Shown: positions 27,333 through 42,298 of the stretch, piece by piece
How the letters are laid out: each line of letters opens with the position of its first letter
How positions within the stretch are numbered: position 1 is the first letter of the stretch
From: Pseudomonas sp. HN11
GTDB lineage: Bacteria > Pseudomonadota > Gammaproteobacteria > Pseudomonadales > Pseudomonadaceae
DNA length: 64,000 nt
Direction: 5' to 3'
Assembly: GCF_021390155.1 (NCBI RefSeq)
Contig: NZ_CP089985.1
Location: 2,553,001-2,617,000 of the forward strand
The notes under the pieces: model-generated
Told to the model about the DNA's origin: nothing
Databases searched by the model: none
What the model saw: only the letters and a program-made list of their open reading frames with translations
Position numbers and translations under genes: made by a program

Positions 27333-28766
27333 TCAGAGCGATTTGCCCACCAACACTTCCTGCTTCCGCCCCGCACTGTTCACATTCACCGTACGAGCGA
27401 AACTCACGCCATTTTCTTTGAATTCACACAGCACCCGATCCCGAAACGCCGTCTGCGGATAGATCCAGGTCATTTCCAATGTCTTCTCATTCAACCAGCG
27501 CGCACCTGCGACGATCTGCGCATCCTTGAATTCATACCCATGGTGCAGCGCACGGCCGGGCATGCTGGTGAAGCCGTTGAGCCAATGGTTGATGCCGACC
27601 TGCACGCGGTGAGTCGCCTGGCTGTCGGTCAGCTCGAAGGTCAAGACATCACCCGCAAACTCGAACGATAACTGACGCACGCCGAGTCCGTTCTGTGCTA
27701 CGGAAAATACGCGCTTCGCATCTTCCGGCGCCGCGCAGTCCGAGGCCAACGAAGGTCGTTCGGCCATGCGTGCCAACCGCTGCTCCAGCCGCGCATCGGC
27801 CTCGGGTTTCGCGCTGCAATCCTCACCAAACACCGCCGGAAAATACCGCTCGATATGCGGCACGATTTCCGCCGAGTTTTTCATCCCGCCCACCAGCACC
27901 AGCGTCGCGTTGTGTTCGCGATACACCGCCGCCATCTGCACAAACACGCCCAATGCACTGAACGCCGGTCGCGGTTTCATCATCCAGTGGTAGCCGTAAC
28001 GGCTGTCCGGCCCGCCTTGGGGTTGGGTGGCGGCGCGGACCCAGGCGGTCGGCAATACTTGTCGCCCATTCCATAGTCCATCCTGGGCATGCAGCACCGC
28101 CAGTTTCAGCGCCGCCGACACGGGGGCGGTGAGGCCGTTGCCGCCGGGGTTCACGCCGTCCGGGCCGATGTCCCAGGTTTCATTGTGAATATCCAAGGGG
28201 ATGAACAGGCGCGGCTTGAGGTATTCGTGCAGGGTTTGGCCGGTGACGCGGTTGATCAGCGCCGAGAGCATGTAGCTGGCGGCGCTGGTGTAGACGTACT
28301 CGGTGCCCGGCGCGTGGGCCAGAGGAATCTTGAAGAATTCAGCTATCCAACTGGTGGTGATGCCGCGCCACACGGAGCCGGAGGTGTTGCTGGCGTGGCC
28401 GGTGCGCATGGTCAGCAGGTGTTCGACGGTCATGTCGGCCAGGCGTGGGTTGGCTTCGGCTGGCACTTCGTCGGGGAAGAAGTCGACCAGGCGGTCGTCC
28501 AGCCTGAGCAAGCCCTCTGCGATAGCCAGGCCGATGGCGCAGCCGGTGAAGCTCTTGGCCATGGAGTGCAGCACGCGTGGCTCATTGGGGTCTACCGGCC
28601 AGGTCCAGCCTTCGGCGACCACGTGGCCGTGGCGGTGCAGCATGAAGCCGTGCAGGTCGAGGCCGGCGGCCTTGACCTCGTCGAGAAACGCGATCAAACG
28701 GTCGGGGTCAACGCCGACACCGCTGGCGCTGGCGCGGGGCAAACCATCGTAGGAAGTCAGGGGCAT
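27333..28766 (-). CDS. Class C beta-lactamase-like serine hydrolase
   Basis: A 477-residue enzyme of the beta-lactamase/penicillin-binding-protein-like family. The nucleophile motif SxxK is SMAK (residues 68-71, in VLHSMAKSFTGCA) and the second motif is in GTEYVYTSAASYML. It lacks an obvious signal peptide. Relatives are esterases, peptidases and 6-aminohexanoate-type amidases. The C-terminal 120 residues form a beta-rich extension. The gene sits next to a LysR regulator and a peptide transporter operon, so it might act on the same compound class, for instance as an intracellular amide hydrolase. The ATG at 28766 is preferred to a TTG at 28781. Confidence 0.85.
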   Translation of the reverse strand: MPLTSYDGLPRASASGVGVDPDRLIAFLDEVKAAGLDLHGFMLHRHGHVVAEGWTWPVDPNEPRVLHSMAKSFTGCAIGLAIAEGLLRLDDRLVDFFPDEVPAEANPRLADMTVEHLLTMRTGHASNTSGSVWRGITTSWIAEFFKIPLAHAPGTEYVYTSAASYMLSALINRVTGQTLHEYLKPRLFIPLDIHNETWDIGPDGVNPGGNGLTAPVSAALKLAVLHAQDGLWNGRQVLPTAWVRAATQPQGGPDSRYGYHWMMKPRPAFSALGVFVQMAAVYREHNATLVLVGGMKNSAEIVPHIERYFPAVFGEDCSAKPEADARLEQRLARMAERPSLASDCAAPEDAKRVFSVAQNGLGVRQLSFEFAGDVLTFELTDSQATHRVQVGINHWLNGFTSMPGRALHHGYEFKDAQIVAGARWLNEKTLEMTWIYPQTAFRDRVLCEFKENGVSFARTVNVNSAGRKQEVLVGKSL

Positions 28767-28790
28767 GAAAACGCTCGGCAAGAAGGTGGA

Positions 28791-29705
28791 TCAACGGCTG
28801 CGATGCACCAATCGGGAATAGGAAATCAGCATGCTGGTGAGCTCTTGGCAGACGCCGGTGAGGGGCGCGGAGCGGCGGCTGATCAGGCACACATCACGGG
28901 GTGCCAGGGGTTCTTCGATGGCAATGGTGGTGAGTGCGCTGGAAAACAGCTTCATCCCCGGCAGCATGCGCGGCTCGATGGTCAGGTAGTCGGTTTCCGA
29001 GACGATGTGCAGGGTTTCCAGCAGCGAGTCGGTGGTGATGGCGATCTTCGGCGGCGCCAGGCCCTGGGTGCGGAACAGCTGGACCAGGCGATTTTCCGCG
29101 CCGCCGATCACGCCGGTGGAGCGCACGCTGATCCATTGGCAATCCACCAGTTCCTGGACCGATCTGGCCTGGGCCAACGGGTGTCCCTTGCGTGCAATGA
29201 TGCCGGCGTTGGAACTGTAGAGGCGGTCGATGGACAGGTCGATGTCGGTGACATTCGGGGCCAGCGGGCACAGCACGAAATCCAGGCGACCATCGCGGAC
29301 CTTTTCCACCAGGCCCTTGGTGGTGCCGCTGGCGACATGCACCTGGATGCGCGGGAAGCGCTGGGTGAAGTTGCTCAGCACCGGCACCAGCAGTTCGGCG
29401 AGGGGCTCGGAGGTCACGCCCAGGTCGATATGGCCCTCGGGCTCGCCTTTCCAGGGTTGCAGGTCGAGCAAGGCGCGCTCGCAATCGAGGGTAATGGAGC
29501 GGGCGCGCACCAGGAACACTTCGCCGGCCGACGTCAGGTTGATGCCTTGGTTCGAGCGTTGCAGCAGTACCACACCGAGTTCTTTTTCCAAGGTCTGGAT
29601 CGATTGGGTCAAGGTGCTTTGCGCTACGTCCAATTGGCGCGCGGCAGAGCGGAAACTGCCTTTTTCGACCACGGCACAGAATGCACGAAGATGGGTGAGT
29701 GTCAT
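28791..29705 (-). CDS. LysR-family transcriptional regulator
   Basis: A 304-residue LTTR. The winged helix is MTLTHLRAFCAVVEKGSF then SAARQLDVAQSTLTQSIQTLE and GVVLLQRSNQGINLTSAGEV. The effector-binding domain follows (about 90-300). It is transcribed away from the peptide transporter operon at 30085 and toward the serine hydrolase, with about 380 bp of intergenic DNA holding two dyads. The divergent layout suggests it controls the transporter operon and responds to the imported compound or its breakdown product. It probably also reads through into the hydrolase gene, which starts only 24 bp after it. Confidence 0.9.
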   Translation of the reverse strand: MTLTHLRAFCAVVEKGSFRSAARQLDVAQSTLTQSIQTLEKELGVVLLQRSNQGINLTSAGEVFLVRARSITLDCERALLDLQPWKGEPEGHIDLGVTSEPLAELLVPVLSNFTQRFPRIQVHVASGTTKGLVEKVRDGRLDFVLCPLAPNVTDIDLSIDRLYSSNAGIIARKGHPLAQARSVQELVDCQWISVRSTGVIGGAENRLVQLFRTQGLAPPKIAITTDSLLETLHIVSETDYLTIEPRMLPGMKLFSSALTTIAIEEPLAPRDVCLISRRSAPLTGVCQELTSMLISYSRLVHRSR

Positions 29706-30084
29706 GAAGGACTGCCTCAGGTTGCAGCATTTAAACCATTGAATGACCGCCAGCTTATCTGATGACTATCGGTGCGCACAGATCGGTTACGCCGATCAGG
29801 TTCGCTATTTTTGAACATGCGCAAACGGCTCCAGCCCCTGATTTTTCGGTAGGCTGGGGACAGGTCACGACGGACTTGGCAGGTGATCGGAAAAGCCGAG
29901 CCTGATCACTTGGAGCGTTCTTCTCAAGCTTGCCGCGTGGAGAATAAGATCGGTTCAGGAACATTCGCCAACCGTGAAGGCGATTAAAACAACAACAACT
30001 ATCCAGGTGTTCGGCCGTGCCTCTCTTTGGGTCCTGCCAGCGTCCGAACCCCATGCGTAAGGAACATTTAAGGTGCAGCTATCC
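29706..30084. promoter_or_regulatory. Divergent control region between LysR and peptide transporter genes
   Basis: 379 bp without a gene. It holds two dyads that could be LysR operators: GATCGG-N5-CCGATC (29781-29797) and GTGATC-N15-GATCAC (29883-29909). A candidate Hfq/Crc site lies further down. No promoter element is convincing by eye. Confidence 0.45.
29986..29999 (+). promoter_or_regulatory. Candidate Hfq/Crc site upstream of the peptide binding protein
   Basis: AAAACAACAACAAC contains AAnAAnAA, the catabolite-repression motif. It lies about 85 nt before the ATG at 30085, further than the usual position, so it would only act if inside the 5' leader. Confidence 0.35.
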
Positions 30085-31647
30085 ATGAACAAGACTTTAA
30101 TCCTGGCAGGCGCTTTGTCTGCGGCGCTGGTGGGCACTGCCCACGCCGAAAGTGTGTTGAAGGTGGCCCTCAACGCTGATATCCGCAGCACCGACCCGGG
30201 TGTGAACCGCGACACCAACTCCGACGCGGTGATCATGCACATCACCGAAGGGCTGGTAGCCTTCCGTGAAGACGCCACCGTCGGCCCGCTGCTGGCCAAG
30301 GACGTGCAGGTGTCCGACGACGGCCTGCGCTACACCTTCCACCTGCGCGACGGAGTGAAGTTCCAGAATGGCAAGGCGCTGACCTCCGCTGACGTGCTGT
30401 GGACCTGGAAGCGCTTCCTCGACCCCAAGACCCAATGGCGCTGCGCACCTGAATTCGATGACCATGGCGGCGCCAAGATCGTCGACATGAGCGCCCCGGA
30501 CCCACTCACCGTGGTGTTCACCCTCGACAAGCCCAACGGCCTGTTCCTCACCAGCACTGCGCTGCCTGAGTGTGGCGGCAGCGGCATCTTGTCTGCAGAC
30601 TCGCTCAACGCCGATGGCAGCTGGAAAGCCCCGGTCGGCACCGGCCCGTTCCAACTGGGCGAGTGGAAGCCCGGCCAATATGTCGAGCTGCTGCGTAACC
30701 CCAATTACACCGCTCGCGACGAGAAAGAGCCCGACGGCTACACCGGTAACAAGACCGCCCACGTGGACCGCGTACGCCTGCTGGTGATCCCGGACCCGGC
30801 GGCCGCCAAAGCTGCGCTGCTGTCGAAAAACGTCGACCTGCTGATCGACGTCACCCCGCTGGACGCCACCGAACTGGCCGCCAACCCCGGCGTGCGCGTG
30901 ACCTCCAGCGGCACTATGTCGGTCAACGCCTTGCTGTTCCAGACTCGCGACCCGCTGCTCAAGGATGTGCGCCTGCGCCAGGCCATCGCCCATGCCCTGG
31001 ACTCGGCGCAAATCGTCGAGGCGCTCACCGGCGGCCGTTCCAAGGCCAACAATTCGATGGTTGCCAGCGGCAGCCATTACCACACCGCCGTCGAAGACCA
31101 GGGCTTCACGTTCGACCCGACCAGGACCGCAAAACTGCTGCGCGAGGCTGGCTACAAAGGTGAGCCCATCAAGCTGATCGTGAACAAGCGCTATGCGGCG
31201 ATCTTTGATATGGGCGTGTTCGTGCAGGCCATGGCCAAGGCCAGCGGCATCAACCTGGAACTGGAAACCCTGGAGTGGGGCACGCAGCTTGAGCGCTACC
31301 AGAGCGGCAACTACCAGATGATGGCTTTCCCGTACTCCGAACGCCTCGACCCGGCCCTGAGCTTCGACTCGATGACCGGCGACAAGGACAAGGAATCACG
31401 CAAGGTCTGGGACAACCCCCAGGCCCGCGAATGGCTGCGTGAAGCCCAGCGCGAAGGCGACATCACCAAGCGCCAGACGCTGTTCGATCAACTGCACCAG
31501 CAGATGATCAAGGACGTGCCGATGATCCCGATGTACAACGGCAACGCGATTGCCGCCAGCCGTGACTACGTCAAGGGCCTGCGCACCTGGCCGGTGTCCA
31601 AGCCGCGCCTGTGGACCGTCAGCGTTCCAGCCGCCGGGAGCAATTAA
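30085..31647 (+). CDS. Peptide/oligopeptide ABC transporter substrate-binding protein
   Basis: A 520-residue family-5 binding protein (DppA/OppA type). Signal peptide MNKTLILAGALSAALVGTAHA. Conserved: LKVALNADIRSTDPGVNR, the family motif FHLRDGVKFQNGKALTSADV, GTGPFQLGEWKPGQYVELLRNPNY, and DVRLRQAIAHALD. It captures the compound in the periplasm for the two permeases and fused ATPase encoded next. The ATG at 30085 gives the clean signal peptide. First gene of a four-gene transporter operon with an OprD porin after it. The substrate could be a dipeptide, an opine or an acylated amino acid. Confidence 0.92.
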   Translation: MNKTLILAGALSAALVGTAHAESVLKVALNADIRSTDPGVNRDTNSDAVIMHITEGLVAFREDATVGPLLAKDVQVSDDGLRYTFHLRDGVKFQNGKALTSADVLWTWKRFLDPKTQWRCAPEFDDHGGAKIVDMSAPDPLTVVFTLDKPNGLFLTSTALPECGGSGILSADSLNADGSWKAPVGTGPFQLGEWKPGQYVELLRNPNYTARDEKEPDGYTGNKTAHVDRVRLLVIPDPAAAKAALLSKNVDLLIDVTPLDATELAANPGVRVTSSGTMSVNALLFQTRDPLLKDVRLRQAIAHALDSAQIVEALTGGRSKANNSMVASGSHYHTAVEDQGFTFDPTRTAKLLREAGYKGEPIKLIVNKRYAAIFDMGVFVQAMAKASGINLELETLEWGTQLERYQSGNYQMMAFPYSERLDPALSFDSMTGDKDKESRKVWDNPQAREWLREAQREGDITKRQTLFDQLHQQMIKDVPMIPMYNGNAIAASRDYVKGLRTWPVSKPRLWTVSVPAAGSN

Positions 31648-31649
31648 GG

Positions 31650-32591
31650 ATGTTTCGTTTTATCTCCCAACGCCTGGCGATGTCGATTCCGACCTTGCTG
31701 CTGATCTCGCTGATGGTGTTCGCGATCATCCGCCTGGTGCCGGGTGATCCTGCACTGCTGATGCTTGGCGACATGGCCGACGCGCACAGCCTGGAAGTCG
31801 CACGGGCGTCCCTGGGACTGGACCAGCCGTTGCCGGTGCAGTTCGTGATCTGGCTCAAGGCGGTGCTCAGCGGCGACCTTGGGCACTCGATCACTACCAA
31901 TGAGGCGGTGTTGCCGCTGATCCTGGACCGGTTCCAGGTGAGTGCGGGAATTGTCTTGGTGTCGGTGTTGTTGGCGGCGTTGATTGCGGTACCGGCGGGC
32001 TTGCTGTCGGCCTGGAAGCAGGACAGTGCGCTGGACTTCGGCGTGGTGTCGACCGCCACGTTGTTGCTGTCGATCCCCAGTTTCTGGCTCGGTTTGCTGC
32101 TGTTGTATGCGTTCGGCATCAAGCTTGGCTGGTTGCCGGTGGTGGGTTATGTGTCATTCGGCCAATCGCCGTGGCAGGCCCTGAGTTTCATTGTGCTGCC
32201 GATTGTCACCCTGACATTGGTGGAGCTGGGTGCGATCACGCGGATGGCGCGGGCCAGTGCGATTGAAGTGCTGCGCCTGGAGTACATCACCCATGCGCGG
32301 GCCAAAGGCTTGTCGGAGCGTGCGGTGCTGTGGCGCCATGCGCTGCGCAACTCATTTGCACCGACCCTGACCCTGATCGGGCTGATCCTCGGCAACCTGC
32401 TCAGCGGCATCGCCGTGCTGGAAACCGTGTTCACCCTACCGGGTATCGGCCGGCTGATGGTCGACGCCATCTACGCCCGGGACTACCCGGTGCTGCAAGG
32501 CTGCCTGCTGCTGGTGACCTTTGTTTATGTGCTGGTCAACCTGTTGGTCGACCTGCTGTACCCGCTCTTCGACCCCAGGGTTAAGTTATGA
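31650..32591 (+). CDS. Peptide-type ABC transporter permease (DppB-like)
   Basis: A 313-residue permease with six predicted membrane helices. Typical features: MFRFISQRLAMSIPTLLLIS and RLVPGDPALLMLG at the N-terminus, and the ATPase-contact loop EYITHARAKGLSERAVLWRH, RNSFAPTLTL near the end. The start lies 2 bp after the binding-protein stop. It pairs with the DppC-type permease that overlaps its stop (ATGA) to form the membrane channel. Confidence 0.92.
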   Translation: MFRFISQRLAMSIPTLLLISLMVFAIIRLVPGDPALLMLGDMADAHSLEVARASLGLDQPLPVQFVIWLKAVLSGDLGHSITTNEAVLPLILDRFQVSAGIVLVSVLLAALIAVPAGLLSAWKQDSALDFGVVSTATLLLSIPSFWLGLLLLYAFGIKLGWLPVVGYVSFGQSPWQALSFIVLPIVTLTLVELGAITRMARASAIEVLRLEYITHARAKGLSERAVLWRHALRNSFAPTLTLIGLILGNLLSGIAVLETVFTLPGIGRLMVDAIYARDYPVLQGCLLLVTFVYVLVNLLVDLLYPLFDPRVKL

Positions 32592-33466
32592 ATAAGCCAC
32601 TGCCTGTTGCACCCGAGGTGCTGTTGCCCGCACCGGTGCGTGCCCCCAGGGGCTGGCGCGTGCCGCCGTTGAATGCGTTGATCGGTGCGGTTTTGTTGGG
32701 CTTGCTGTTGATCATGGCCGCACTCGGCCTGGTGTGGACGCCCCATGACCCGCTGGCGCTAAACCTGCTGGCGCGCTTGCAGGCACCGACCGCCGCGCAC
32801 TGGCTGGGCACCGATGAATACGGCCGCGATGTCTTGAGTCGCTTGATGATCGGCGCACACACCAGCCTGTGGGTGAGTGTGCTGACGGTGAGCATGGCGA
32901 TTATCGCCGGCACCTTTCTCGGCTTGCTGGCCGGTTTCCTGCGCGGCTGGGTCGACCGTGGCCTGATGATGATCAACGACGCGCTGCTGGCGTTCCCCGG
33001 CATCCTGCTGGCCCTGGGCTTGATGGCGATCATCGGCCCGAGCCTGTACGGCATCGTGTTCGCCCTGAGCCTGGCCTACACGCCGTCGGTGGTGCGCGTG
33101 GTGCGCGGCACGGTGCTGTCGCTGCGGGAAAAAGAGTTTGTCGAAGCTTCGCGGGTGATCGGCAACTCCGAGCTGTACACCATGCTGCGCCACATCGCGC
33201 CGAACTGCGTGGCGCCGGTGTGTGTGCTGGCCACCAGTATGTTCGGCTGGGCAATCCTTGCGGAGAGTTCGTTGAGTTTCCTCGGCCTGGGCGTACCGCC
33301 ACCGGCGGCGACCTGGGGCAACATGCTCGCGGCCAGCCGGCCGTACATCGCCACGGCCAGTTGGCTGGGGCTGTTTCCCGGTGTCTGCATCGCCATGGCG
33401 TTGCTGGCGTTCAACCTGTGTGGCGATGCCTTGCGTGACCGCCTTGATCCACGGATGAGTAAATGA
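32588..33466 (+). CDS. Peptide-type ABC transporter permease (DppC-like)
   Basis: A 292-residue permease. It opens with a proline-rich cytosolic tail then a hydrophobic helix (LNALIGAVLLGLLLIMAALGL). Characteristic DppC motifs are HWLGTDEYGRDVLSRLMIG and the EAA-type loop EKEFVEASRVIGNSELYTMLR, then the loop APNCVAPVCVLATSM. Overlaps the DppB-type gene and the ATPase gene by 4 bp each, so the three are translationally coupled. Together they make the membrane channel. Confidence 0.92.
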   Translation: MNKPLPVAPEVLLPAPVRAPRGWRVPPLNALIGAVLLGLLLIMAALGLVWTPHDPLALNLLARLQAPTAAHWLGTDEYGRDVLSRLMIGAHTSLWVSVLTVSMAIIAGTFLGLLAGFLRGWVDRGLMMINDALLAFPGILLALGLMAIIGPSLYGIVFALSLAYTPSVVRVVRGTVLSLREKEFVEASRVIGNSELYTMLRHIAPNCVAPVCVLATSMFGWAILAESSLSFLGLGVPPPAATWGNMLAASRPYIATASWLGLFPGVCIAMALLAFNLCGDALRDRLDPRMSK

Positions 33467-35106
33467 GCATGACTGACGTACTTTTGGCCGTCGATCACCT
33501 GAAAATCCGCATTGGCGCCCACGGCCCGCTGGCGGTCAACGACCTGAGCTTTACCATCGCTCCCGGCGAAATCGTCGCCTTGGTGGGTGAGTCCGGCAGC
33601 GGCAAGACCATGGCCGCCCGGGCCGCCATCGGCCTGTTGCCGCCACCGCTGGAACACTGCGGCGGCCAGGTGCGTTTCCAGGGGCACGACCTTAACAGCC
33701 TCAAGCCCGAGCAACTGCGCGAGCTGCGTGGGGCCAAGATCGGCATGGTGTTCCAGGAACCGATGGTGTCGCTGAACCCGTCCATGAGCATTGGCGAGCA
33801 AATGGCCGAGGGCCTGCGCTTGCACACCAAGCTGACGGATGCGCAGATCCGCGAACGCAGCCTGGAGATGCTCGGCCATATCGGCATCAAGGATGCCGAG
33901 CGTTGCCTGTCGGCGTTTCCCCACGAGTTCTCCGGCGGCATGCGCCAACGCATCATGCTCGCCTCGGTGATGTTGCTGCGCCCGGCGCTGCTGATCGCCG
34001 ACGAGCCCACCACGGCGCTGGATTGCCTGGCACAGCTGGACGTATTGAAGCTGATGCTCGACCTCACTCGCGAGCAGGGCACGGCGATTCTGTTCATCAG
34101 CCATGACCTATCCCTGGTGGCGCGCTACGCCCACAAGGTGGTGGTGATGCGTGAAGGCCGCGCGGTGGAGCAGGGCACCATCGAGCAGATCCTGCTGGCA
34201 CCCAAGGCCGAGTATACCCGGCAGTTGCTGGAGGCCTTGCCGCGTCGCGGGGTACTGGCGGCCTTGCCCCAGGCCGACGGTCCGCTGCTGAGGGTCAAGG
34301 ACCTATGCATCGAACACCCCGGCCCGCGCAGCCTGTGGGGCCGCACCGCGTTCAAACGCGTGGTGCACTCGGCCAACCTCACCATCGCACCGGGAGAAAC
34401 CCTGGCGCTGGTGGGCGGCAGCGGTTCGGGCAAGACCACCCTGGGGCGCGCGATTGTCGGCTTGAACAAAGCCTGTGCCGGCGCCATCGAGTTTGAAGGC
34501 GTGGACATTCTCAAGTCCGGCAACCGCGAGCATCGCCTGCAATGCCAGATGATTTTCCAAGACCCGTATTCATCCCTCGACCCGCGCATGAAGATTGGCG
34601 AGATCCTCGCTGAGCCGCTGCGCCACATGCCGGGCATGAGTGCCGAGCAGAAGCGTGAACGGGTCACCAAGACTTTGCTGGACATCGGCTTGGCCGAACA
34701 GTTTGTCGACCGCTTCCCGCACCAGCTCTCCGGTGGTCAGCGCCAGCGTGTCGCCATTGGCCGCGCACTGGTGCGTCACCCACGGCTGGTGATCGCCGAC
34801 GAGCCGATCTCGGCGTTGGACATGACCATCCAGAAGCAGATTCTGGAACTGTTCGAACGCCTGCAGGCGCAGTACGGCTTTGCCTGCCTGTTCATCTCCC
34901 ACGACCTGGCGGCGGTGGAGCGCATTGCTCACCGGGTCGCGGTAATGAGCGAGGGCAGGGTGGTGGAAATGGGCGCCCGCGATGAGATCTTCGACCGCCC
35001 GCAACACCCTTACACCCGCAAGTTGCTGGCCGCCGCCAGCCCTTTGGAGAAACTTGAAAATGGTGGCTACCGCATCCGCCAAGGCCCCGTACCGCTAGCG
35101 CTGTAA
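33463..35106 (+). CDS. Fused peptide ABC transporter ATPase (DppD-DppF type)
   Basis: A 547-residue protein with two complete ABC domains in one chain, corresponding to DppD then DppF. First domain: Walker A GESGSGKTMA (near 43), signature in FSGGMRQRIML and Walker B LLIADEPTTALD. Second: GGSGSGKTTL (near 320), signature LSGGQRQRVAIG, Walker B LVIADEPISALD. Fused pairs occur in the YejF/GsiA line. It powers the permease pair. The start overlaps the DppC-type stop. The final residues (about 25) follow the family's peptide-transport C-terminal motif (PYTRKLLAA). Confidence 0.92.
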   Translation: MSMTDVLLAVDHLKIRIGAHGPLAVNDLSFTIAPGEIVALVGESGSGKTMAARAAIGLLPPPLEHCGGQVRFQGHDLNSLKPEQLRELRGAKIGMVFQEPMVSLNPSMSIGEQMAEGLRLHTKLTDAQIRERSLEMLGHIGIKDAERCLSAFPHEFSGGMRQRIMLASVMLLRPALLIADEPTTALDCLAQLDVLKLMLDLTREQGTAILFISHDLSLVARYAHKVVVMREGRAVEQGTIEQILLAPKAEYTRQLLEALPRRGVLAALPQADGPLLRVKDLCIEHPGPRSLWGRTAFKRVVHSANLTIAPGETLALVGGSGSGKTTLGRAIVGLNKACAGAIEFEGVDILKSGNREHRLQCQMIFQDPYSSLDPRMKIGEILAEPLRHMPGMSAEQKRERVTKTLLDIGLAEQFVDRFPHQLSGGQRQRVAIGRALVRHPRLVIADEPISALDMTIQKQILELFERLQAQYGFACLFISHDLAAVERIAHRVAVMSEGRVVEMGARDEIFDRPQHPYTRKLLAAASPLEKLENGGYRIRQGPVPLAL

Positions 35107-35127
35107 CCCAGGACTGACATCACCCGC

Positions 35128-35150
35128 CGCGCAAATCCCGGATTTGCGCG
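35128..35150. terminator. Hairpin between ATPase and porin genes
   Basis: CGCGCAAATC (35128-35137) pairs perfectly with GATTTGCGCG (35141-35150) across a 3-nt loop. No T-run, so it is more likely an RNA-processing or attenuating stem than a full stop, since the porin gene lies only 67 bp further on. Confidence 0.45.
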
Positions 35151-35172
35151 AACGGCGAAGCCATGTCCGAAG

Positions 35173-35180
35173 AACAATAA
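35173..35180 (+). promoter_or_regulatory. Candidate Hfq/Crc site upstream of the porin
   Basis: AACAATAA fits AAnAAnAA and continues AAAA. It lies about 38 nt before the porin ATG, well placed for translational repression by Hfq/Crc. Confidence 0.4.
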
Positions 35181-35217
35181 AAACCCCCAACCATGACACT
35201 GCCAGGAGCTTAAAAAA

Positions 35218-36471
35218 ATGAAAAAATCCCTGACTCAATTCATCATCGGCGTTGGCGTCGTGAGCAGCGGGATAATCCCGTTCGCCGCCCATGCTGACTT
35301 CATCAAGGACAGCAGCGGTACGCTGGAATTGAAGAACTACTACTTCAATCGTGACTACCGCGAAGAAGCCAGCCAGTCGGTGCGTGCCGAATGGGCCCAA
35401 GGCTTTCTGCTGGGGATCAAGTCGGGCTTTACCGACGGCACCGTGGGCTTTGGCCTGGATGCCATGGGCATGCTCGGCTTGAAACTCGACTCCAGCCCGG
35501 ATAAGTCCGGCACCGGCTTGCTACAGCGTGACAGCGACAAGCGCGCTTCCGACAGCTACTCCAAACTCGGGGTGACCGCCAAGGCACGCTTGGCCAAGAG
35601 CGAACTGCGCGTGGGCTATCTCGTGCCGGACCTGCCGACCCTGCAACCCAACACCAGCCGCCTGTTCCCGCAATCTTTCAGCGGTACGCAACTGGTGTCC
35701 AACGACATCAGCAACCTCAAGATCAGCCTCGGCCAGCTGGACCAGGCCAAGGACCGTGACTCCACCAACTACGAAGACATGAAGCTGACCACCATCAGCA
35801 AGGTCTACAAAAGTACGGCCTTGAGCGACCAGTTCCGCTTCGCCGGTGGTGATTATTCGCTGACCCCGAACACCTTGCTCAGCTACCACTATGCCGAGCT
35901 GGACAGCATCTACCACCAGCAATACGGCGGCTTCAAGAACAGCTTCGGCCTGGGGCCGGGCAACCTGAAGACCGACGTGCGCTATTTCAAGGCCGACAAG
36001 GACGGCGCTGGCCTCGCGGGTGATGTCGATAACCGCGCCTTGAGTACACGCCTGACCTACCAGTATGGCGGCCATAGCATCGGCGGCGGTTTCCAGCGGC
36101 AGTTCGGCACCACGCCGTTCACCTATCTGGATGGATCCATCAGCTACCTGTTCACCGAGTACCAGTTCACCAACTTCACCCAGACCAAGGAGCGCGCCTG
36201 GCACGCGCGCTACGACTACAACTTCGCCGACCTGGGCCTGCCGGGCCTGTTGTTCGGGATCAAGTACGCCAAGGGGGATTCGGCTGAAGTGATCGGCTTC
36301 AACGGCGAAGGCCGTGAATGGGAGCGCGACGTGGACATCAGCTACGTGGTGCAGACCGGCCCGTTCAAGGGGGTGTCGATGCGTTGGCGCAACGCCCTGG
36401 CCAAGGGCAACTTCTACAACGACGTCAACGAAAACCGCGTGCTGCTGGGCTATACCCTGGCGCTCTGGTAA
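35218..36471 (+). CDS. OprD-family outer-membrane porin
   Basis: A 417-residue OprD-type porin. Signal peptide ends near FAAHADF. The mature N-terminus shows the typical FIKDSSGTLELKNYYFNRDYR, with QGFLLGIKSGFTDGTVGFGLD and YLVPDLPTLQPNTSRLFPQSF downstream. The end is LLGYTLALW with a terminal aromatic. The barrel would admit a small basic or acidic nutrient across the outer membrane. It follows the peptide ABC operon and lies before the amidohydrolase gene, so it probably forms the entry port for the same compound. OprD paralogues differ in substrate; the family alone does not decide it. Confidence 0.92.
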   Translation: MKKSLTQFIIGVGVVSSGIIPFAAHADFIKDSSGTLELKNYYFNRDYREEASQSVRAEWAQGFLLGIKSGFTDGTVGFGLDAMGMLGLKLDSSPDKSGTGLLQRDSDKRASDSYSKLGVTAKARLAKSELRVGYLVPDLPTLQPNTSRLFPQSFSGTQLVSNDISNLKISLGQLDQAKDRDSTNYEDMKLTTISKVYKSTALSDQFRFAGGDYSLTPNTLLSYHYAELDSIYHQQYGGFKNSFGLGPGNLKTDVRYFKADKDGAGLAGDVDNRALSTRLTYQYGGHSIGGGFQRQFGTTPFTYLDGSISYLFTEYQFTNFTQTKERAWHARYDYNFADLGLPGLLFGIKYAKGDSAEVIGFNGEGREWERDVDISYVVQTGPFKGVSMRWRNALAKGNFYNDVNENRVLLGYTLALW

Positions 36472-36535
36472 CCACGGGCGGGGCGGCCTGGGCTGATCGG
36501 TTTTGCAGATCAAGATAGCCCCGGCCGCCCTTACA
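36472..36535. repeat. Long imperfect GC-rich inverted repeat after the porin gene
   Basis: GGGCGGGGCGGCCTGGGCT after the stop can pair imperfectly with a segment ending AGCCCCGGCCGCCC around 36519-36532. It could terminate or stabilise the porin transcript. No T-run. Confidence 0.4.
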
Positions 36536-36601
36536 GGCGATCACCCGGTCTCGTTAGTATTTTCTCCAGTTCCGTCACTCGAATATCGAGACTTCTGCGT
36601 T

Positions 36602-37720
36602 ATGAAACTTAATCAACACCCTTTGCTGCAAGCGACACAAGGTACCCACAGGCACGTGGCAAGTGAGCATTACGGTGCAATGGGTGCAGGTTGCAAAATC
36701 TATATTCAGGCGGCACTGCATGCCGATGAAACCCCGGCAATGCTGGTGGCCGCGCACCTGCGCCGGCAACTGGCGGCGCTGGAAAACGCCGGCCGCTTGA
36801 ATGCGCAGATCGTGCTGGTCGCCGTGGCCAACCCCGCCGGTCTGGGCCAATACATATTGGGCGCGCCCAGTGGACGTTTCGAGCTGGGCAGCGGGCGCAA
36901 CTACAACCGCGGGTTCCCGGTACCTTACCAAGCCATCGCCGAGAAAATCGAGCACCGGCTCGGCCAGGACATCGACGCCAACCGCGCGCTGATCCGCCAG
37001 GCCTGGGGCGAATGCCTGCGCGCCGCCCAGCCGATGGATGAGTACCAGTCGCTGCAACAGACCCTGATGCTGCTGGCCCACGATGCCGACATCGTGCTGG
37101 ACCTGCATTGCTCACGCGAAGCGGCGATGCACCTCTACACCGGTGAGTCGGTGTGGCCGACCATCGAGCCGCTGGCCCGTTACATCGGTGCCGAAGCGAC
37201 CTTGCTGGCGACCGACTCCCAGGCCAATTCGTTTGATGAAGCGCTGTACCTGTTGTGGGTGAATTTGCGCGAGCGTTTTGGCGCACGTTTTCCGATTCCG
37301 GACAGCAGCATCGCGGTGACGGTCGAGCACCGTGGTCAGCGCGATGTGTCCTATGAACTGGCGGACCATGACGCCACGGCAATCATCGATTACTTGACCC
37401 ACCTGGGCGCCATCGAAGGCACGCCGCGCCCACTGCCGATGCTGCGCAACCCTGCCACGCCGCTGGCGGGCAGTGAGCAGTTCTACGCGCCGAGTGCCGG
37501 GGTACTGGTGCACCGTGCCACCGTTGGGAGCCGGATTGAAGCGGGGCAGGTGTTGTTCGATATCGTCGATCCCCATAGCGGCAAGACCGTGACAGTCAGC
37601 AGCAATACGACCGGTGTGCTGTACATGCGCCGTGATGTGCGGTTTGTGAAACCGGGAGACCCGTTGGGTCGCGTCTCCGGGGCTACACCCATTCGCAGCG
37701 GCAAGCTGCTCAGCGCTTGA
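36602..37720 (+). CDS. Succinylglutamate desuccinylase/aspartoacylase family amidohydrolase
   Basis: A 372-residue zinc amidohydrolase of the AstE/AspA (M14-like) group. Zinc ligands fit H40-A-D-E43 (in AALHADETPAML) and H169 (in VLDLHCSRE). The substrate-binding NYNRGFP motif is present. The C-terminal 90 residues form a beta domain with GVLVHRATVGSRIEAGQ. The family cleaves N-acyl amides of amino acids (succinyl-, acetyl-glutamate or aspartate). The ATG at 36602 gives a normal start; the frame is open to 36503. The aminotransferase gene follows after 27 bp. It likely removes an acyl group from the imported amino acid derivative. Confidence 0.88.
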   Translation: MKLNQHPLLQATQGTHRHVASEHYGAMGAGCKIYIQAALHADETPAMLVAAHLRRQLAALENAGRLNAQIVLVAVANPAGLGQYILGAPSGRFELGSGRNYNRGFPVPYQAIAEKIEHRLGQDIDANRALIRQAWGECLRAAQPMDEYQSLQQTLMLLAHDADIVLDLHCSREAAMHLYTGESVWPTIEPLARYIGAEATLLATDSQANSFDEALYLLWVNLRERFGARFPIPDSSIAVTVEHRGQRDVSYELADHDATAIIDYLTHLGAIEGTPRPLPMLRNPATPLAGSEQFYAPSAGVLVHRATVGSRIEAGQVLFDIVDPHSGKTVTVSSNTTGVLYMRRDVRFVKPGDPLGRVSGATPIRSGKLLSA

Positions 37721-37747
37721 TCAGAAATCTACTAGGCAGGACTCTCC

Positions 37748-38941
37748 ATGCACACCAATCCGGCAATCAACCTCGAAAACCAATTCTGCGCCCACAATTA
37801 TTCGCCACTGCCGGTGGTCATCGTCAAGGGCGAGGGCGTCTGGGCCATTGGCGATGACGGCATGCGCTACCTGGACATGATGTCGGCCTATTCCGCCGTC
37901 AGTCACGGCCATGTACACCCGCGTATCCGCGCCGCCGCCGTGACGCAGATCGACAAAATCAGCGTGGTGTCCCGTGCGTTCTACAGCGAGCCGTTGGGCA
38001 ACTTCCTCAAGGCACTCTGCCGCATCAGTGGTTTCGATTCCGCGCTGCCGATGAACAGTGGCGCCGAAGCCGTGGAGACCGCGATCAAGGCGGCCCGCCG
38101 CTGGGGTTATCGGGTCAAGGGCATCGCCGCGAATCAGGCGAAGATTGTGGTGGCCGACAATAATTTCCACGGGCGTACCTCAACCATCGTCGGCTTTTCC
38201 TCCGAACCTGATTACAAGGCCGACTTCGGCCCGTTCTGCAACGGCTTCACCGAAGCACGCTTTGGCGATATCGAGAGTTTCCGCCAGGCGATCACGGCCG
38301 ACACCTGCGCCGTGCTGATCGAACCGATCCAGGGCGAAGCCGGTATTCGCGTGCCGCCGGCCGGCTTCCTGCGAGCGCTGCGCAAACTCTGCGATGAGAC
38401 CAACACTTTGCTGATCCTCGATGAGATCCAGTCGGGCCTGGGCCGTACCGGCAAGTGGTTCGCCTTCCAGCATGAAGGCATTCGCCCGGATGGGCTGATC
38501 CTCGGTAAAGCGCTGGGCGGCGGGATCATGCCGGTGTCGGCGTTTTTGGCGGATCACTCGATCATGGACCTGTTCGATGCCGGCAGCCACGGCTCGACCT
38601 TCGGCGGCAACCCGTTGGCTGCTGCGATTGGTCTGGAAGCCCTGAACGTGCTGGAGGACGAAGGCCTGATCGACAACAGCGCGCAGCTCGGCCATTACCT
38701 GGTGGAACGCCTCCAGGCGATGAAATCCCCTGCGATCCGCGAGATTCGCGGGCGTGGGTTATGGGTCGGTGTGGAACTGGATCGCGATGCGCGTCCGATC
38801 TGTGAGGCGCTGCTTGCCGAGGGACTGCTGACCAAGGAAACCCACGAAAACGTGCTGCGTATTGCACCGCCATTGTCCATCACCCGCGAGGAACTGGATT
38901 GGGGCCTGGCGCGCATCGAACGGGTATTCGCGCAGTTATGA
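37748..38941 (+). CDS. rocD: Ornithine-type class III aminotransferase (PLP)
   Basis: A 397-residue class III aminotransferase. It matches ornithine-oxo-acid transaminase: MMSAYSAVSHGHVHPRI, LPMNSGAEAVETAIKAARRWGY, NNFHGRTSTIVGFS, VLIEPIQGEAGIRVPP, LLILDEIQSGLGRTG. K254 in LGKALGGGIMPVSA is the PLP lysine. It would turn ornithine and 2-oxoglutarate into glutamate semialdehyde and glutamate. It follows the amidohydrolase with a 27-bp gap and its stop overlaps the aconitase start (ATGA). The context supports deacylation first, then transamination. The symbol is by similarity; acetylornithine or another diamine is a possible alternative substrate. Confidence 0.85.
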   Translation: MHTNPAINLENQFCAHNYSPLPVVIVKGEGVWAIGDDGMRYLDMMSAYSAVSHGHVHPRIRAAAVTQIDKISVVSRAFYSEPLGNFLKALCRISGFDSALPMNSGAEAVETAIKAARRWGYRVKGIAANQAKIVVADNNFHGRTSTIVGFSSEPDYKADFGPFCNGFTEARFGDIESFRQAITADTCAVLIEPIQGEAGIRVPPAGFLRALRKLCDETNTLLILDEIQSGLGRTGKWFAFQHEGIRPDGLILGKALGGGIMPVSAFLADHSIMDLFDAGSHGSTFGGNPLAAAIGLEALNVLEDEGLIDNSAQLGHYLVERLQAMKSPAIREIRGRGLWVGVELDRDARPICEALLAEGLLTKETHENVLRIAPPLSITREELDWGLARIERVFAQL

Positions 38942-41592
38942 ATCACGCTCTGAACCACCTGCACATTGACGGGCAGCGCTACGCCTATATCGACCTGCAT
39001 AAGCTGCTGACCCCGGCGCACTTGCATCGGCTGCCCTATTCGCTGCGCATCCTGCTGGAAAACATCGCCCGATGCGCCCCGGCTTCATTGTCCGCCGTCC
39101 TGGCGCGGGCCACAGGACACGGGCCGGACTGCGAGGTGCCGTTCCAGCCCAACCGCCTGATGTTCCATGACACCACCTGCCTGCCGGCCCTGGCCGACTT
39201 TGCCGGAATGCGCGATGTGGTGGCGGAACTGGGCGGTGACCCGACGGCGGTGAACCCGGCGATCCCGGCGGTGTTGACCATCGACCATTCGGTGATTGTC
39301 GAGCACTACGCTGAAGCCGGTGCGGTGGACGCCAACCTGGATATCGACTTTCGCCGCAACAGCGAGCGTTACCGCTTTATCAAGTGGGCCCAGGCCAGCC
39401 TGGACAACTTCAAGGTGATCCCACCCGGCACGGGCATCATCCACCAGATGAACATGGAGTCCATCGCGCAGGTGGTGTGGGAAAGCCCGGCTCCTGACGG
39501 CGGTGTGTTGCTGCATCCCGATTGCATGGTTGCCACCGACAGCCATACGCCGATGATCAATGCCATCGGTGTGTTGGGATGGGGCGTGGGCGGGTTGGAA
39601 GGGCAGGCGGCGATGCTCGGTGAGCCGGTGCCGATTCCATTTCCACACGTGGTGGGGATTCGCGTGAGCAATGCCTTGCGCCCCGGCGTGACGGCGACGG
39701 ACCTGGCGTTGACCGTGACCGAGTTGCTGCGTCGGCGCAGCATGGTGGGCAAGTTTGTCGAGTTCAGCGGGCCCGGGCTGGCATCATTGAGTTGGGCGGC
39801 CCGGGGCACTGTGGCGAACATGGCGCCGGAGTATGGTGCGACGGTGGTGTTTTTCCCATTCGATGACGAGACCTTGTCTTACCTGGAATTGAGCGCGCGC
39901 CCGGCGCCGTTGCTGGCCAAGGTCTCGGCCTACATGGCGGCGCAGTCGCTGTGGCGCCAGGAAGGTGAGCCTGAGCCGCAGTTCGATGAGTTGATCGAAC
40001 TGGATCTGGCCCAGGTGGAACCGAGCGTGGCCGGGCCCCATCAGCCCCATCAGCGTCGGTCGCTGGCGCAGGCGGGTGCCTCGTTTCACCAGCATGTGCA
40101 GGGTGAGAGCGGACAACAGTATTTCGAGCCGTCCTTTGATGCCCCGCTGACTCACGGCGCGGTGGTGATGTCGGCGATCACCAGTTGCACCAATACGGCC
40201 AATCCGGCGCAGATGATCCAGGCCGGGTTGCTGGCGCGTAATGCGCGGGCGCGTGGTGTGGGGCGCAGGCCCTGGGTGAAAACCTCGCTGTCGCCGGGCT
40301 CGCGGGTGGTGGCGGATTATCTGGAATCGGCAGGCTTGCTGGAGGACTTTGCCGCGCTGGGCTTTGAGCTGGCGGGTTTTGGGTGCATGACCTGTATCGG
40401 GAACTCCGGCAGCCTTGAGGCGCATGTGGAGGCCTTCGCCGAGCAAGGGCTCAAGGGGGTGGTGGTGCTGTCGGGCAATCGCAATTTCGAAGGTCGGGTC
40501 AACCCGAAAGTCCCGGCCGGCTACCTGGCATCGCCAGCATTGTGCGTGGCTTACGCAATTGCCGGGAGTATCGACATCGACCTGTCCAGCCAGCCGCTGG
40601 CACTGGACGCCCAAGGCAAACCGGTGTACCTGCATGAGTTGATGCCCAGTGATGCCGAGGTGGCAGCGCAAGTTGCGCACGTGGTGCGGCCAGCGTTGTT
40701 CCAGCAGCGTAGTGAACTGCTATGGCGGGGCACGCATCACTGGCAGGCGCTGGAGGCCGATGGCAGCGTGCAGTTTGCCTGGCATCCGGACTCCACCTAT
40801 TTGCGCCGTCCGCAGTACCTGGCGGATGTGCAGCCGTTGCCGGCGACGCGCTTGTCGGTGCGCAATGCCAGGGCGTTGGTGGTGCTGGGCGATAACGTCA
40901 CCACTGACCATATCTCACCGGCCGGCACGATTCCCTCGGAGAGTCTGGCCGGCGCATGGTTGCGTGAGAGAGGCGAGGCCGAAGTGGATTTCAACCAGTA
41001 CTCGACCCGCCGCAGTAACCACGAGGTGATGGTGCGCGGTGCCTTTACCAACCCGCGCCTGAACAACCTGCTGAACCCATCGCAATCACCGCGTCAGGGC
41101 GTGTGGGCGTGGAATGCCGACCACAGCGTCTACCAGCCGCTGTACCTGGCCGCACAGAGCTACGTCGGCACGCCGACGGTGCTGTTCGCCGGGAACAACT
41201 ATGGTGCGGGCTCCAGCCGCGATTGGGCGGCAAAGGTGCTGAGCCTGCTGGGCATCAAGGCGGTAGTGGCGCGCAGTATCGAGCGTATTCATCGCAGTAA
41301 CCTGATTGGCATGGGTGTGTTGCCGTTGGTGTTCAGCGAAGGGGAGACGGTGCAGCACTTGCAGCTCGACGGCGGCGAGCGCCTGACATTCCTCGGCCTG
41401 GAAAACCTGCAGGTCGGCGAAAACCCGATTACGCTGCAGATCGATCGTGCCGATGGCCGTGTCACCATGAGCCGGTTAGCGTTGCGCCTCGACTCGCTGC
41501 AAGAGCTTGGTTACCTTGTGCACGGCGGCGTGCTGCCGTTTGTAATCCGCAAGACCGTGCAACGGACCCGCCAAGGAGCGCGTGATGATTGA
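38938..41592 (+). CDS. Aconitase-family hydratase (AcnA type)
   Basis: An 884-residue protein of the AcnA/IRP1 type. The 4Fe-4S ligands are C417 (in ITSCTNTANP) and C483 and C486 (GFGCMTCIGNSG). Substrate motifs include ATDSHTPMINAIGVLGWGVGG and, in the swivel domain, FAGNNYGAGSSRDWAAK. It is somewhat shorter than the housekeeping AcnA of Pseudomonas (about 910 residues), so it is probably a paralogue. It is translationally coupled to the ornithine-type aminotransferase (ATGA) and overlaps the next gene. The reaction would be reversible dehydration/hydration of citrate or a related tricarboxylate. Why an aconitase sits in this amino-acid catabolic operon is not explained. Confidence 0.9.
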   Translation: MNHALNHLHIDGQRYAYIDLHKLLTPAHLHRLPYSLRILLENIARCAPASLSAVLARATGHGPDCEVPFQPNRLMFHDTTCLPALADFAGMRDVVAELGGDPTAVNPAIPAVLTIDHSVIVEHYAEAGAVDANLDIDFRRNSERYRFIKWAQASLDNFKVIPPGTGIIHQMNMESIAQVVWESPAPDGGVLLHPDCMVATDSHTPMINAIGVLGWGVGGLEGQAAMLGEPVPIPFPHVVGIRVSNALRPGVTATDLALTVTELLRRRSMVGKFVEFSGPGLASLSWAARGTVANMAPEYGATVVFFPFDDETLSYLELSARPAPLLAKVSAYMAAQSLWRQEGEPEPQFDELIELDLAQVEPSVAGPHQPHQRRSLAQAGASFHQHVQGESGQQYFEPSFDAPLTHGAVVMSAITSCTNTANPAQMIQAGLLARNARARGVGRRPWVKTSLSPGSRVVADYLESAGLLEDFAALGFELAGFGCMTCIGNSGSLEAHVEAFAEQGLKGVVVLSGNRNFEGRVNPKVPAGYLASPALCVAYAIAGSIDIDLSSQPLALDAQGKPVYLHELMPSDAEVAAQVAHVVRPALFQQRSELLWRGTHHWQALEADGSVQFAWHPDSTYLRRPQYLADVQPLPATRLSVRNARALVVLGDNVTTDHISPAGTIPSESLAGAWLRERGEAEVDFNQYSTRRSNHEVMVRGAFTNPRLNNLLNPSQSPRQGVWAWNADHSVYQPLYLAAQSYVGTPTVLFAGNNYGAGSSRDWAAKVLSLLGIKAVVARSIERIHRSNLIGMGVLPLVFSEGETVQHLQLDGGERLTFLGLENLQVGENPITLQIDRADGRVTMSRLALRLDSLQELGYLVHGGVLPFVIRKTVQRTRQGARDD

Positions 41593-42298
41593 CCCCCTCG
41601 TACTGCAACAACTGGCCCCGGATGGCGTGCTGCGCGCCGCCATCAACTTCGGCAACCCGGTGCTGGCGCAACGCGGCGCGAACGGAGAGGCTCAAGGCGT
41701 TTGCGTGGCGTTGGCCAAGACACTGGCTGCAGAGCTGGGTGTCGAGTTGGAACTCATCACGTTCGAGGCGGCGGGTAAGGTGTTTGCTGCGCTGGCCGAG
41801 GATGCCTGGCGCGTGGCGTTCCTGGCGATCGAGCCGGTGCGTGAGAGGGAGATTGCCTTCAGCGCACCGTATGTAGCGATCAAGGGCACGTATCTGGTGG
41901 CGGCGGGCTCACCTTTCACTCACGTCGCGCAACTGGACGCACCAGGCCGACGCATCGCCGTCGGCGAAGGCGCGGCCTACGATCTGTACTTGAGCCGCAC
42001 GGTCGAGCATGCCGAACTGGTTCGGGCGCCCACCTCAGCCGCAGCGGTGGATTGGTTTATCGAGCAAGGTCTGGAGGCGGCGGCAGGGGTGCGGGACTTT
42101 CTGCAAACCAAGGTCACCGAGCGATGGCGCCTGGTGCAGGACGACTTCATGACCATCCGCCAAGCCATGGCCGTACCGGTGGCACACGCAGCCGCTGCCG
42201 CGTTCGTCAGGTCCTTTGTCGAACGGCAGAAAGAAAATGGCGGGGTGAAGCGAGGTCTGTTGGCCAGTGGCCAAAGCGCGGAACTACAGGCGACGTAG
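41585..42298 (+). CDS. Family-3 solute-binding-fold protein without signal peptide
   Basis: A 237-residue protein of the periplasmic-binding fold (SBP_bac_3-like): GVLRAAINFGNPVLAQRGA, then GVCVALAKTLAAELGVELEL, FLAIEPVREREIAFSAPYV and KGTYLVAAGSPFTHVAQL. It begins MIDPLVLQQLAPDGV with no signal peptide, so it is probably cytosolic, unlike its transport relatives. Its start (ATG 41585, or GTG 41582) overlaps the aconitase stop by 8 bp, which argues for joint action. It may be an enzyme (some PBP-fold enzymes such as cyclohexadienyl dehydratase exist), or a cytosolic binding or sensor protein. The 3' end overlaps the Nudix gene on the other strand by 15 bp. Confidence 0.75.
   Translation: MIDPLVLQQLAPDGVLRAAINFGNPVLAQRGANGEAQGVCVALAKTLAAELGVELELITFEAAGKVFAALAEDAWRVAFLAIEPVREREIAFSAPYVAIKGTYLVAAGSPFTHVAQLDAPGRRIAVGEGAAYDLYLSRTVEHAELVRAPTSAAAVDWFIEQGLEAAAGVRDFLQTKVTERWRLVQDDFMTIRQAMAVPVAHAAAAAFVRSFVERQKENGGVKRGLLASGQSAELQAT

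What the first reader, a model, noticed from the sequence alone, without database searches (positions are those of the whole stretch)
27333..42298. Catabolic island for an unknown ornithine-linked acyl compound
One strand carries, in order, a peptide-type binding protein, two permeases, a fused ATPase, an OprD porin, an AstE/aspartoacylase-like amidohydrolase, an ornithine-type aminotransferase, an aconitase paralogue and a cytosolic binding-fold protein. A divergent LysR gene and a serine hydrolase lie on the left. The last three genes overlap (4 and 8 bp). The combination suggests import, cleavage of an N-acyl amide, transamination of the freed ornithine and processing of a tricarboxylate. 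A citryl-ornithine conjugate, as in staphyloferrin A-type siderophores, would yield both ornithine and citrate and would explain the aconitase. The chemistry is inference; the gene content and coupling are visible.
Basis: partly seen in the sequence, partly recalled or inferred. Interest (0 to 1): 0.75.

Follow-up and report, generated by a model that had tools for sequence, protein, structure and literature searches.

The report
Tricarboxylate-ornithine conjugate catabolic island
Eleven neighbouring Pseudomonas genes encode an importer, an amide-cutting zinc enzyme related to cyanophycin dipeptidase, an ornithine aminotransferase and an extra aconitase, and together they would likely let the cell take in and digest a still unidentified conjugate of ornithine with a citrate-like tricarboxylic acid.

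Summary

The ornithine link is well supported. Beside this enzyme lies OAT in 10 of 10 Pseudomonas loci (plus proC in 3) and ornithine cyclodeaminase in 6 of 6 Pandoraea/Cupriavidus loci, but neither in 64 Burkholderia-type loci.

The tricarboxylate link is new evidence. Aconitase and cytosolic binding-fold gene form a separate module with LysR and lactonase (14 of 14 loci). It joined the ornithine cluster in three arrangements. In 199 Pseudomonas genomes all 6 with OAT have this aconitase, and all 19 with it have the binding-fold gene. The porins share a clade with the genome's own OpdH.

Best reading: import and hydrolysis of an N2-(tricarboxyacyl)-L-ornithine, citryl the leading candidate. 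The substrate is inferred; staphyloferrin A itself (D-ornithine, recalled) is disfavoured. A beta-aspartyl- or other acyl-ornithine beside a separate aconitate module remains possible.

The parts
27333..28781 (-). S12-family (beta-lactamase-like) serine hydrolase, no signal peptide visible by eye; possible second amide/ester hydrolase
   Evidence: Pfam PF00144 99.2 bits; conserved in 10 of 10 Pseudomonas core loci; a C45-type hydrolase gene is found instead in 5 of 6 Pandoraea/Cupriavidus loci
28791..29705 (-). LysR-type regulator, divergent from the operon
   Evidence: PF00126 + PF03466; conserved with the core
29706..30084 (.). 379-bp divergent intergenic region, presumed promoter/operator (not tested)
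   Evidence: spacing
30085..31647 (+). peptide/opine-type binding protein (SBP_bac_5)
   Evidence: PF00496 290.9 bits; solved relatives include peptide, dipeptide, nickel and opine binders
31650..32591 (+). ABC permease 1 (DppB/NikB-like)
   Evidence: PF00528, PF19300
32588..33466 (+). ABC permease 2 (DppC/NikC-like), 4-bp overlap with permease 1
   Evidence: PF00528; overlap
33463..35106 (+). fused two-domain ABC ATPase
   Evidence: two PF00005 stretches, PF08352
35218..36471 (+). OprD-family porin of the OpdH clade
   Evidence: PF03573 462 bits; best solved relative OpdH 430 bits; clade with own OpdH-type porin 95/88, whose best solved relative is OpdH at 574 bits
36602..37720 (+). zinc amidohydrolase related to CphZ/AotO (annotated AstE/aspartoacylase-like), predicted N2-acyl-L-ornithine amidohydrolase
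37748..38941 (+). predicted L-ornithine:2-oxoacid delta-aminotransferase
   Evidence: TIGR01885 484.8 bits, cut-off 378.4; human OAT Tyr55, Tyr85, Arg180, Glu235, Lys292, Arg413 (roles recalled) kept in the alignment; nearest paralogue in the genome 41%
38938..41592 (+). aconitase paralogue, 4-bp overlap with OAT
   Evidence: TIGR01341 967.4 bits, cut-off 945, against 1432 for own AcnA; 47-48% to own AcnA; Fe-S cysteine and active-site motifs kept in the alignment to human cytosolic aconitase (motifs recalled)
41585..42298 (+). SBP_bac_3-fold protein without visible signal peptide, 8-bp overlap with aconitase; found with this aconitase in every aconitase genome examined

Best explanation
This conserved Pseudomonas operon, which encodes a porin of the OpdH clade, a peptide-type ABC importer, a CphZ-related zinc amidohydrolase, ornithine aminotransferase and an aconitase-SBP pair, likely serves to import a conjugate of L-ornithine with a tricarboxylic acid (predicted N2-citryl- or aconityl-type) and would split it inside the cell. 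Steps: (1) the porin would admit the polyanionic conjugate; (2) the SBP5 protein and ABC transporter would carry it in as a dipeptide mimic; (3) the CphZ-like enzyme would cut the amide next to ornithine's alpha-carboxylate, and the serine hydrolase may remove a second acyl group or ester; (4) OAT would turn L-ornithine into glutamate semialdehyde/pyrroline-5-carboxylate, hence glutamate or proline; (5) the extra aconitase would feed the freed tricarboxylate into the citric-acid cycle, with the cytosolic SBP-fold protein acting on, holding or sensing it; (6) LysR would induce the operon. Shown here: gene content, families, conservation, co-occurrence, cyclodeaminase in place of OAT, porin clade, conserved catalytic residues. 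Inferred: every substrate and every flux.
For: Ornithine: of 80 loci with a relative of the hydrolase, OAT lies beside it in 10 of 10 Pseudomonas loci (proC next in 3), ornithine cyclodeaminase within 4.4 kb in 6 of 6 Pandoraea/Cupriavidus loci, and neither (nor proC) in 64 Burkholderia-type loci, at 200 bits and 40% identity or more. The cyclodeaminases of L010 and L018 and the ProC of L007 pass NCBIfam cut-offs. Amide: fold and residues of CphZ. Tricarboxylate: (a) where the aconitase is not beside OAT, SBP3, a lactonase and a second LysR accompany it in 14 of 14 loci, MFS in 9, OprD in 4; (b) the two modules adjoin in three arrangements: after OAT (window, L001-L006), directly after the serine hydrolase (L177), or as a whole LysR-aconitase-lactonase-MFS-SBP3 block after it (L178); in Pandoraea L180 an aconitase-GntR-SBP3 set lies 3-4 kb from the hydrolase operon; (c) OAT in 6, aconitase in 19, SBP3 in 37 of 199 Pseudomonas genomes, strictly nested (hypergeometric 3.4e-7 for OAT within aconitase, ignoring kinship); G088 has both on different contigs; (d) SBP3 relatives lie beside a PrpF equivalog (L202, L203) and beside CitMHS (L204; L205 by eye); (e) the island porins, five porins of SBP3 modules and the genome's own OpdH-type porin (beside a TctC gene) form one clade, 95/88. 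Motif: 8EIN and the genome's three nearest homologues have Asp two residues after the zinc-His (DLHxD); the island type has Ser-Arg. That Arg is in 17 of 17 enzymes with OAT/OCD neighbours (window included) and in 0 of 64 Burkholderia-type ones (63 Leu, 1 Gln).
Against: No substrate was tested. Citrate was a very poor substrate of OpdH/OccK5 in vesicle assays (PMC3260308, passage), so the porin clade is weak evidence. The aconitase-SBP3 module mostly occurs without the ornithine cluster (13 of 19 aconitase genomes), so linkage could be ecological. The clamp residues point to N2-acyl, while the documented N-citryl-L-ornithine (PMC7857480) is probably the N5 amide, given its PLP decarboxylase (my inference). 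The Pandoraea aconitases are 43-45% identical to this one, no closer than to AcnA, and I did not test whether they are those genomes' housekeeping AcnA. The L010, L011 and L018 genomes have no SBP3 match at E 1e-20 (13 of 16 have one). The two Cupriavidus loci show no linked aconitase. In one species (G139; the short frame in L003 agrees) the aconitase frame holds a stop. Eight of 18 SBP3 loci without this aconitase had no clear hit to the module's other genes close by.
Confidence: 0.45

Rival explanations
1. The hydrolase is a CphZ-like isopeptidase that releases ornithine from a beta-aspartyl- or gamma-glutamyl-ornithine dipeptide; the aconitase-SBP3 pair is a separate, co-inherited module.
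For: Nearest characterised enzyme is CphZ, solved with beta-Asp-Arg; family specificity for beta-Asp-Arg/beta-Asp-Lys is stated in PMC10206079 (Discussion passage); peptide-type importer.
Against: Asp in the DLHxD motif, present in 8EIN and three homologues of the genome, is Ser in 17 of 17 ornithine-linked enzymes; the genome already has two aot-type operons with their own CphZ/AotO-like genes; it does not explain the repeated joining with aconitase-SBP3.
Confidence: 0.22
2. Two independent catabolic modules, one for an acyl-ornithine and one for free trans-aconitate or another tricarboxylate, lie together because both compounds occur in the same niche such as root exudate.
For: The aconitase stands without OAT in 13 of 19 genomes; PrpF, whose superfamily includes aconitate isomerase TarA, is a neighbour of SBP3 in L202 and L203 (PMC11495376 abstract, passages and three sections); trans-aconitate is abundant in some plants and inhibits aconitase (same paper, Introduction passage).
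Against: All 6 OAT genomes of 199 carry aconitase and SBP3, also where unlinked (G088); none has OAT alone; OAT and aconitase overlap by 4 bp in the window.
Confidence: 0.2
3. Scavenging of staphyloferrin A or another dicitryl-ornithine siderophore: serine hydrolase and CphZ-like enzyme each remove one citrate.
For: Two unrelated second hydrolases accompany the core: S12 in 10 of 10 Pseudomonas loci, C45 type in 5 of 6 Pandoraea/Cupriavidus loci; in L177 a TonB siderophore receptor (TIGR01783 362.6 bits, cut-off 223.5) follows SBP3 by about 0.2 kb.
Against: Staphyloferrin A has D-ornithine (recalled), OAT acts on L-ornithine (recalled); a relative of that receptor was found in none of the 39 other loci scanned; no TonB receptor in the island itself.
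Confidence: 0.08
4. A simple N2-acylornithine (acetyl- or succinyl-) catabolic operon.
For: AstE_AspA domain hit; ornithine disposal genes.
Against: Only 20% identity to the genome's AstE, 31-49% to 8EIN and the genome's three CphZ/AotO-type proteins; does not explain OpdH-clade porin or aconitase.
Confidence: 0.05

Closest known systems
Cyanophycin dipeptide hydrolase CphZ (PDB 8EIN/8EIP, Acinetobacter baylyi) and AotO of the Pseudomonas aot operon
   Different: 33-34% identity; Asp to Ser-Arg in the motif after the zinc-His; peptide-type ABC importer, OprD porin and OAT instead of aotJQMP; the genome keeps a separate aot operon. That AotO is a CphZ is recalled from the PNAS 2023 paper, which was not held.
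Trans-aconitate assimilation (tar) system
   Same: LysR regulator and entry of a tricarboxylate through aconitase; MFS in 9 of 14 stand-alone aconitase loci; PrpF beside SBP3 in L202 and L203.
   Different: The island has ABC import, no PrpF, and adds amide hydrolysis and ornithine aminotransferase.
Rhizoferrin/staphyloferrin-type citrate conjugates (FigA/FigC N-citrylornithine)
   Same: Shows that N-citryl-L-ornithine is a natural compound (PMC7857480).
   Different: Biosynthesis, not catabolism; the host genome has no IucA/IucC match.
Arginine succinyltransferase (ast) pathway
   Same: AstE_AspA-domain hydrolase and class-III aminotransferase near each other.
   Different: Different subfamilies; the genome has its own AstE (TIGR03242 over cut-off) in a separate locus; no AstA/AstB here.
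Ectoine utilisation (EutE/DoeB deacetylase)
   Different: 16% identity over 298 residues; no EutD-type gene in the island.

Membership tests
CphZ/AotO cyanophycin dipeptide hydrolases | Fold, zinc ligands and catalytic Glu | tested here: met
   H43, E46, H172, E245 and R95, N105, R106 (numbered from codon 36593; subtract 3 for the ATG at 36602) in 17 of 17 island-type sequences
CphZ/AotO cyanophycin dipeptide hydrolases | Asp in the DLHxD motif, shared by 8EIN and three homologues of the genome (that it marks beta-Asp recognition is my inference) | tested here: not met
   Ser174-Arg175 in 17 of 17; so I file it as a CphZ relative, not as a CphZ
CphZ/AotO cyanophycin dipeptide hydrolases | Hydrolysis of beta-Asp-Arg | not testable with these tools
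   needs enzyme assay
Ornithine aminotransferase | Curated model score and active-site residues | tested here: met
   TIGR01885 484.8 against 378.4; residues (roles recalled). The PRK04073 equivalog, 552.7, is below its cut-off 656
Aconitase AcnA | Curated model score and Fe-S/active-site motifs | tested here: met
   TIGR01341 967.4 against 945, only just over; own AcnA 1432, own AcnD 917; alignment
Aconitase AcnA | Orthology to the housekeeping AcnA | tested here: not met
   47-48% to own AcnA; separate branch
OpdH tricarboxylate porins | Clade membership within OprD family | tested here: met
   95/88 with the genome's OpdH-type porin; sister group, 47% identity, so not an OpdH orthologue
OpdH tricarboxylate porins | Tricarboxylate transport | not testable with these tools
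   literature is divided
Periplasmic SBP_bac_3 binding proteins | SBP fold | tested here: met
Periplasmic SBP_bac_3 binding proteins | Signal peptide | tested here: inconclusive
   none visible in the first 30 residues; no predictor run
trans-aconitate tar system | PrpF-family aconitate isomerase in the operon | tested here: not met
   absent from the island; present beside SBP3 in L202 and L203
Siderophore utilisation locus | TonB-dependent receptor in the operon | tested here: not met
   none in the island; one follows SBP3 in L177

The most novel reading that the evidence does not exclude
A dedicated pathway that eats citrate-ornithine conjugates of the siderophore type: one hydrolase (S12 in Pseudomonas, C45 in Pandoraea) removes the outer citryl group, a re-tooled CphZ with a Ser-Arg acyl pocket removes the inner one, OAT or cyclodeaminase takes the ornithine, and a special aconitase with a new cytosolic SBP-fold enzyme or sensor takes the citrate, so that bacteria use other organisms' polycarboxylate chelators as food.
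Probability: 0.18. Interest if true: 0.8.

Novelty: new variant of a known kind. Interest (0 to 1): 0.58.

Why it matters
If true, it points to a natural ornithine-tricarboxylate conjugate common enough that several beta- and gamma-proteobacteria keep import and digestion genes for it, and it extends the CphZ hydrolases beyond cyanophycin. It singles out two uncharacterised parts: a cytosolic SBP-fold protein tied to aconitases, and one arginine that tracks the ornithine context 17 of 17 against 0 of 64. Each is directly testable with one purified enzyme and a few synthetic amides.

Full report
WHAT IS THERE. The eleven genes are present at the stated coordinates, strands and spacings. Likely ATG starts are 30085 (SBP5), 31650 (permease 1), 36602 (hydrolase), 38938 (aconitase) and 41585 (SBP3). 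Four junctions overlap: 4, 4, 4 and 8 bp. The window lies in a single-contig 6.27-Mb genome; its closest relatives among named loci are Pseudomonas reactans, P. canadensis and P. aylmerensis, 94-95% for the hydrolase.

THE ORNITHINE SIDE. OAT scores over TIGR01885 and keeps the residues that I recall as specific for ornithine in human OAT. Its nearest paralogue in the genome is 41% identical. Of 80 loci fetched with the hydrolase (the best of 244), 10 Pseudomonas loci have OAT 1.1-1.4 kb from the start of the hydrolase match, and in three (L007-L009) proC follows; all four Pandoraea and both Cupriavidus loci instead have ornithine cyclodeaminase, 1.1-4.3 kb away; none of the 64 Burkholderia-type loci, some with short flanks, has OAT, OCD or ProC at 200 bits and 40% identity. 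In the two of these read gene by gene (L016, L025) the hydrolase follows an amino-acid-type binding protein gene, and a LysR homologue lies within about 2 kb upstream in 60 of 64. OCD (L010, L018) and ProC (L007) pass NCBIfam cut-offs. Two unrelated ornithine-consuming enzymes beside the same hydrolase make ornithine the likely freed amine.

THE TRICARBOXYLATE SIDE. The aconitase is a distinct branch (47-48% to own AcnA, 40-41% to AcnD). Its subfamily (67% or more) occurs in 19 of 199 Pseudomonas genomes. In the 14 loci where it is not beside OAT, SBP3, a second LysR and a lactonase lie within 8 kb in 14 of 14, an MFS gene in 9 and an OprD gene in 4. All 10 Pseudomonas genomes with the ornithine core have SBP3, and for the four not of the window type the aconitase was found too: L007 (L150), L008 (L177), L009 (L178), L012 (L179). 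The joins differ: after OAT in L001-L006 and the window; after the serine hydrolase in L177; a complete LysR-aconitase-lactonase-MFS-SBP3 block after the serine hydrolase in L178; other contigs in L007 and L012. In Pandoraea L180 (the L013 genome) an aconitase-GntR-SBP3 set lies 3-4 kb from the hydrolase operon; in L010 and L011 an aconitase is next to the LysR gene but the genomes show no SBP3 match; in the L014 genome aconitase-GntR-SBP3 is on another contig, near a further AstE_AspA-domain gene. Counts nest strictly: OAT 6, aconitase 19, SBP3 37 of 199. The chance figure of 3.4e-7 ignores kinship; the six OAT genomes show OAT identities of 82, 92, 96, 96, 96 and 100%. SBP3 relatives without this aconitase stand beside another aconitase with PrpF and lactonase (L202, L203), an aconitase-like gene with MFS and OprD (L195), lactonase (L196), or Ldh_2 and CitMHS (L204; L205 by eye). 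Eight of the 18 loci (L193, L194, L197-L201, L206) had no clear hit to the module's other genes near SBP3.

THE PORIN. The island porin's best solved relative is OpdH/OccK5 (430 bits; next distinct porin, OccK6, 414). In the genome it is closest to a porin beside a TctC gene (47%), whose own best solved relative is OpdH at 574 bits. A tree of 28 rows puts the 12 cluster porins (two of them identical), five porins of SBP3 modules (four with this aconitase, one, L195, with another) and this OpdH-type porin in one clade (95/88). OpdH is called tricarboxylate-specific in PMC6403454 (abstract and Introduction passages), but citrate was a very poor substrate in vesicles (PMC3260308 passage).

HISTORY. 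In two relatives (L189, L191) the window's site, recognised by its flanking genes, holds only a short C-terminal remnant of the aconitase before an intact SBP3: the island was most likely present there and was lost.

READING. Amide hydrolase, ornithine disposal, and a tricarboxylate module that joined the same cluster more than once are best explained by a single conjugate that yields both. N-citryl-L-ornithine is known from rhizoferrin biosynthesis (PMC7857480, abstract and passages), so such molecules exist; the clamp argues for the N2 amide or a di-acylated compound. The second hydrolase (S12 or C45) would fit a di-acylated substrate.

NOVELTY. None of the paper searches listed such a pathway; only open-licence PMC papers are held. 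Known enzyme kinds, a new combination and probably a new substrate: a new variant of a known kind.

Noticed in passing
L189 and L191 (unnamed relatives), about 6.8-7.8 kb: Same chromosomal site without the island; a 37-71 residue remnant of the aconitase C-terminus precedes intact SBP3: a deletion scar.
   Followed up: partly
L130 (G139) and L003: The aconitase frame holds an inner TAG stop in G139; L003 shows a shortened aconitase frame.
   Followed up: no
L093 6342-7466 (-) and L094 7045-8157 (-), window's own genome: Two aot-type operons, each with its own CphZ/AotO-like gene, 43% identical to each other; the role of the second is unknown.
   Followed up: partly
L025 9205-11119 and other Burkholderia-type loci: An amino-acid-type binding protein gene precedes a CphZ relative, without ornithine genes nearby: another uncharacterised hydrolase branch with Leu or Gln at the Arg175 position.
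   Followed up: partly
L202 2605-8475 (+) and L203 7050-13615 (-): An aconitase (50-52% to own AcnA and AcnD for L202), PrpF, lactonase and SBP3-type protein close together: a likely aconitate-type catabolic cluster.
   Followed up: partly
L181 2504-3535 (-): A further AstE_AspA-domain protein beside an aconitase-GntR-SBP3 set in the Pandoraea anhela genome.
   Followed up: no
L177 11785-13875: A TonB-dependent siderophore receptor follows SBP3 in Pseudomonas sp. H9; no relative in 39 other loci scanned, while the window has two distant relatives at 9372-11471 and 18174-20300.
   Followed up: partly
P0247 and P0298: SBP3 relatives are named 'restriction endonuclease' in public records although the Pfam domain is SBP_bac_3: apparent misannotation.
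   Followed up: no
window 43790-44419: A ribonuclease T2 gene lies just right of the island, after a GFO/IDH/MocA-family oxidoreductase gene.
   Followed up: no
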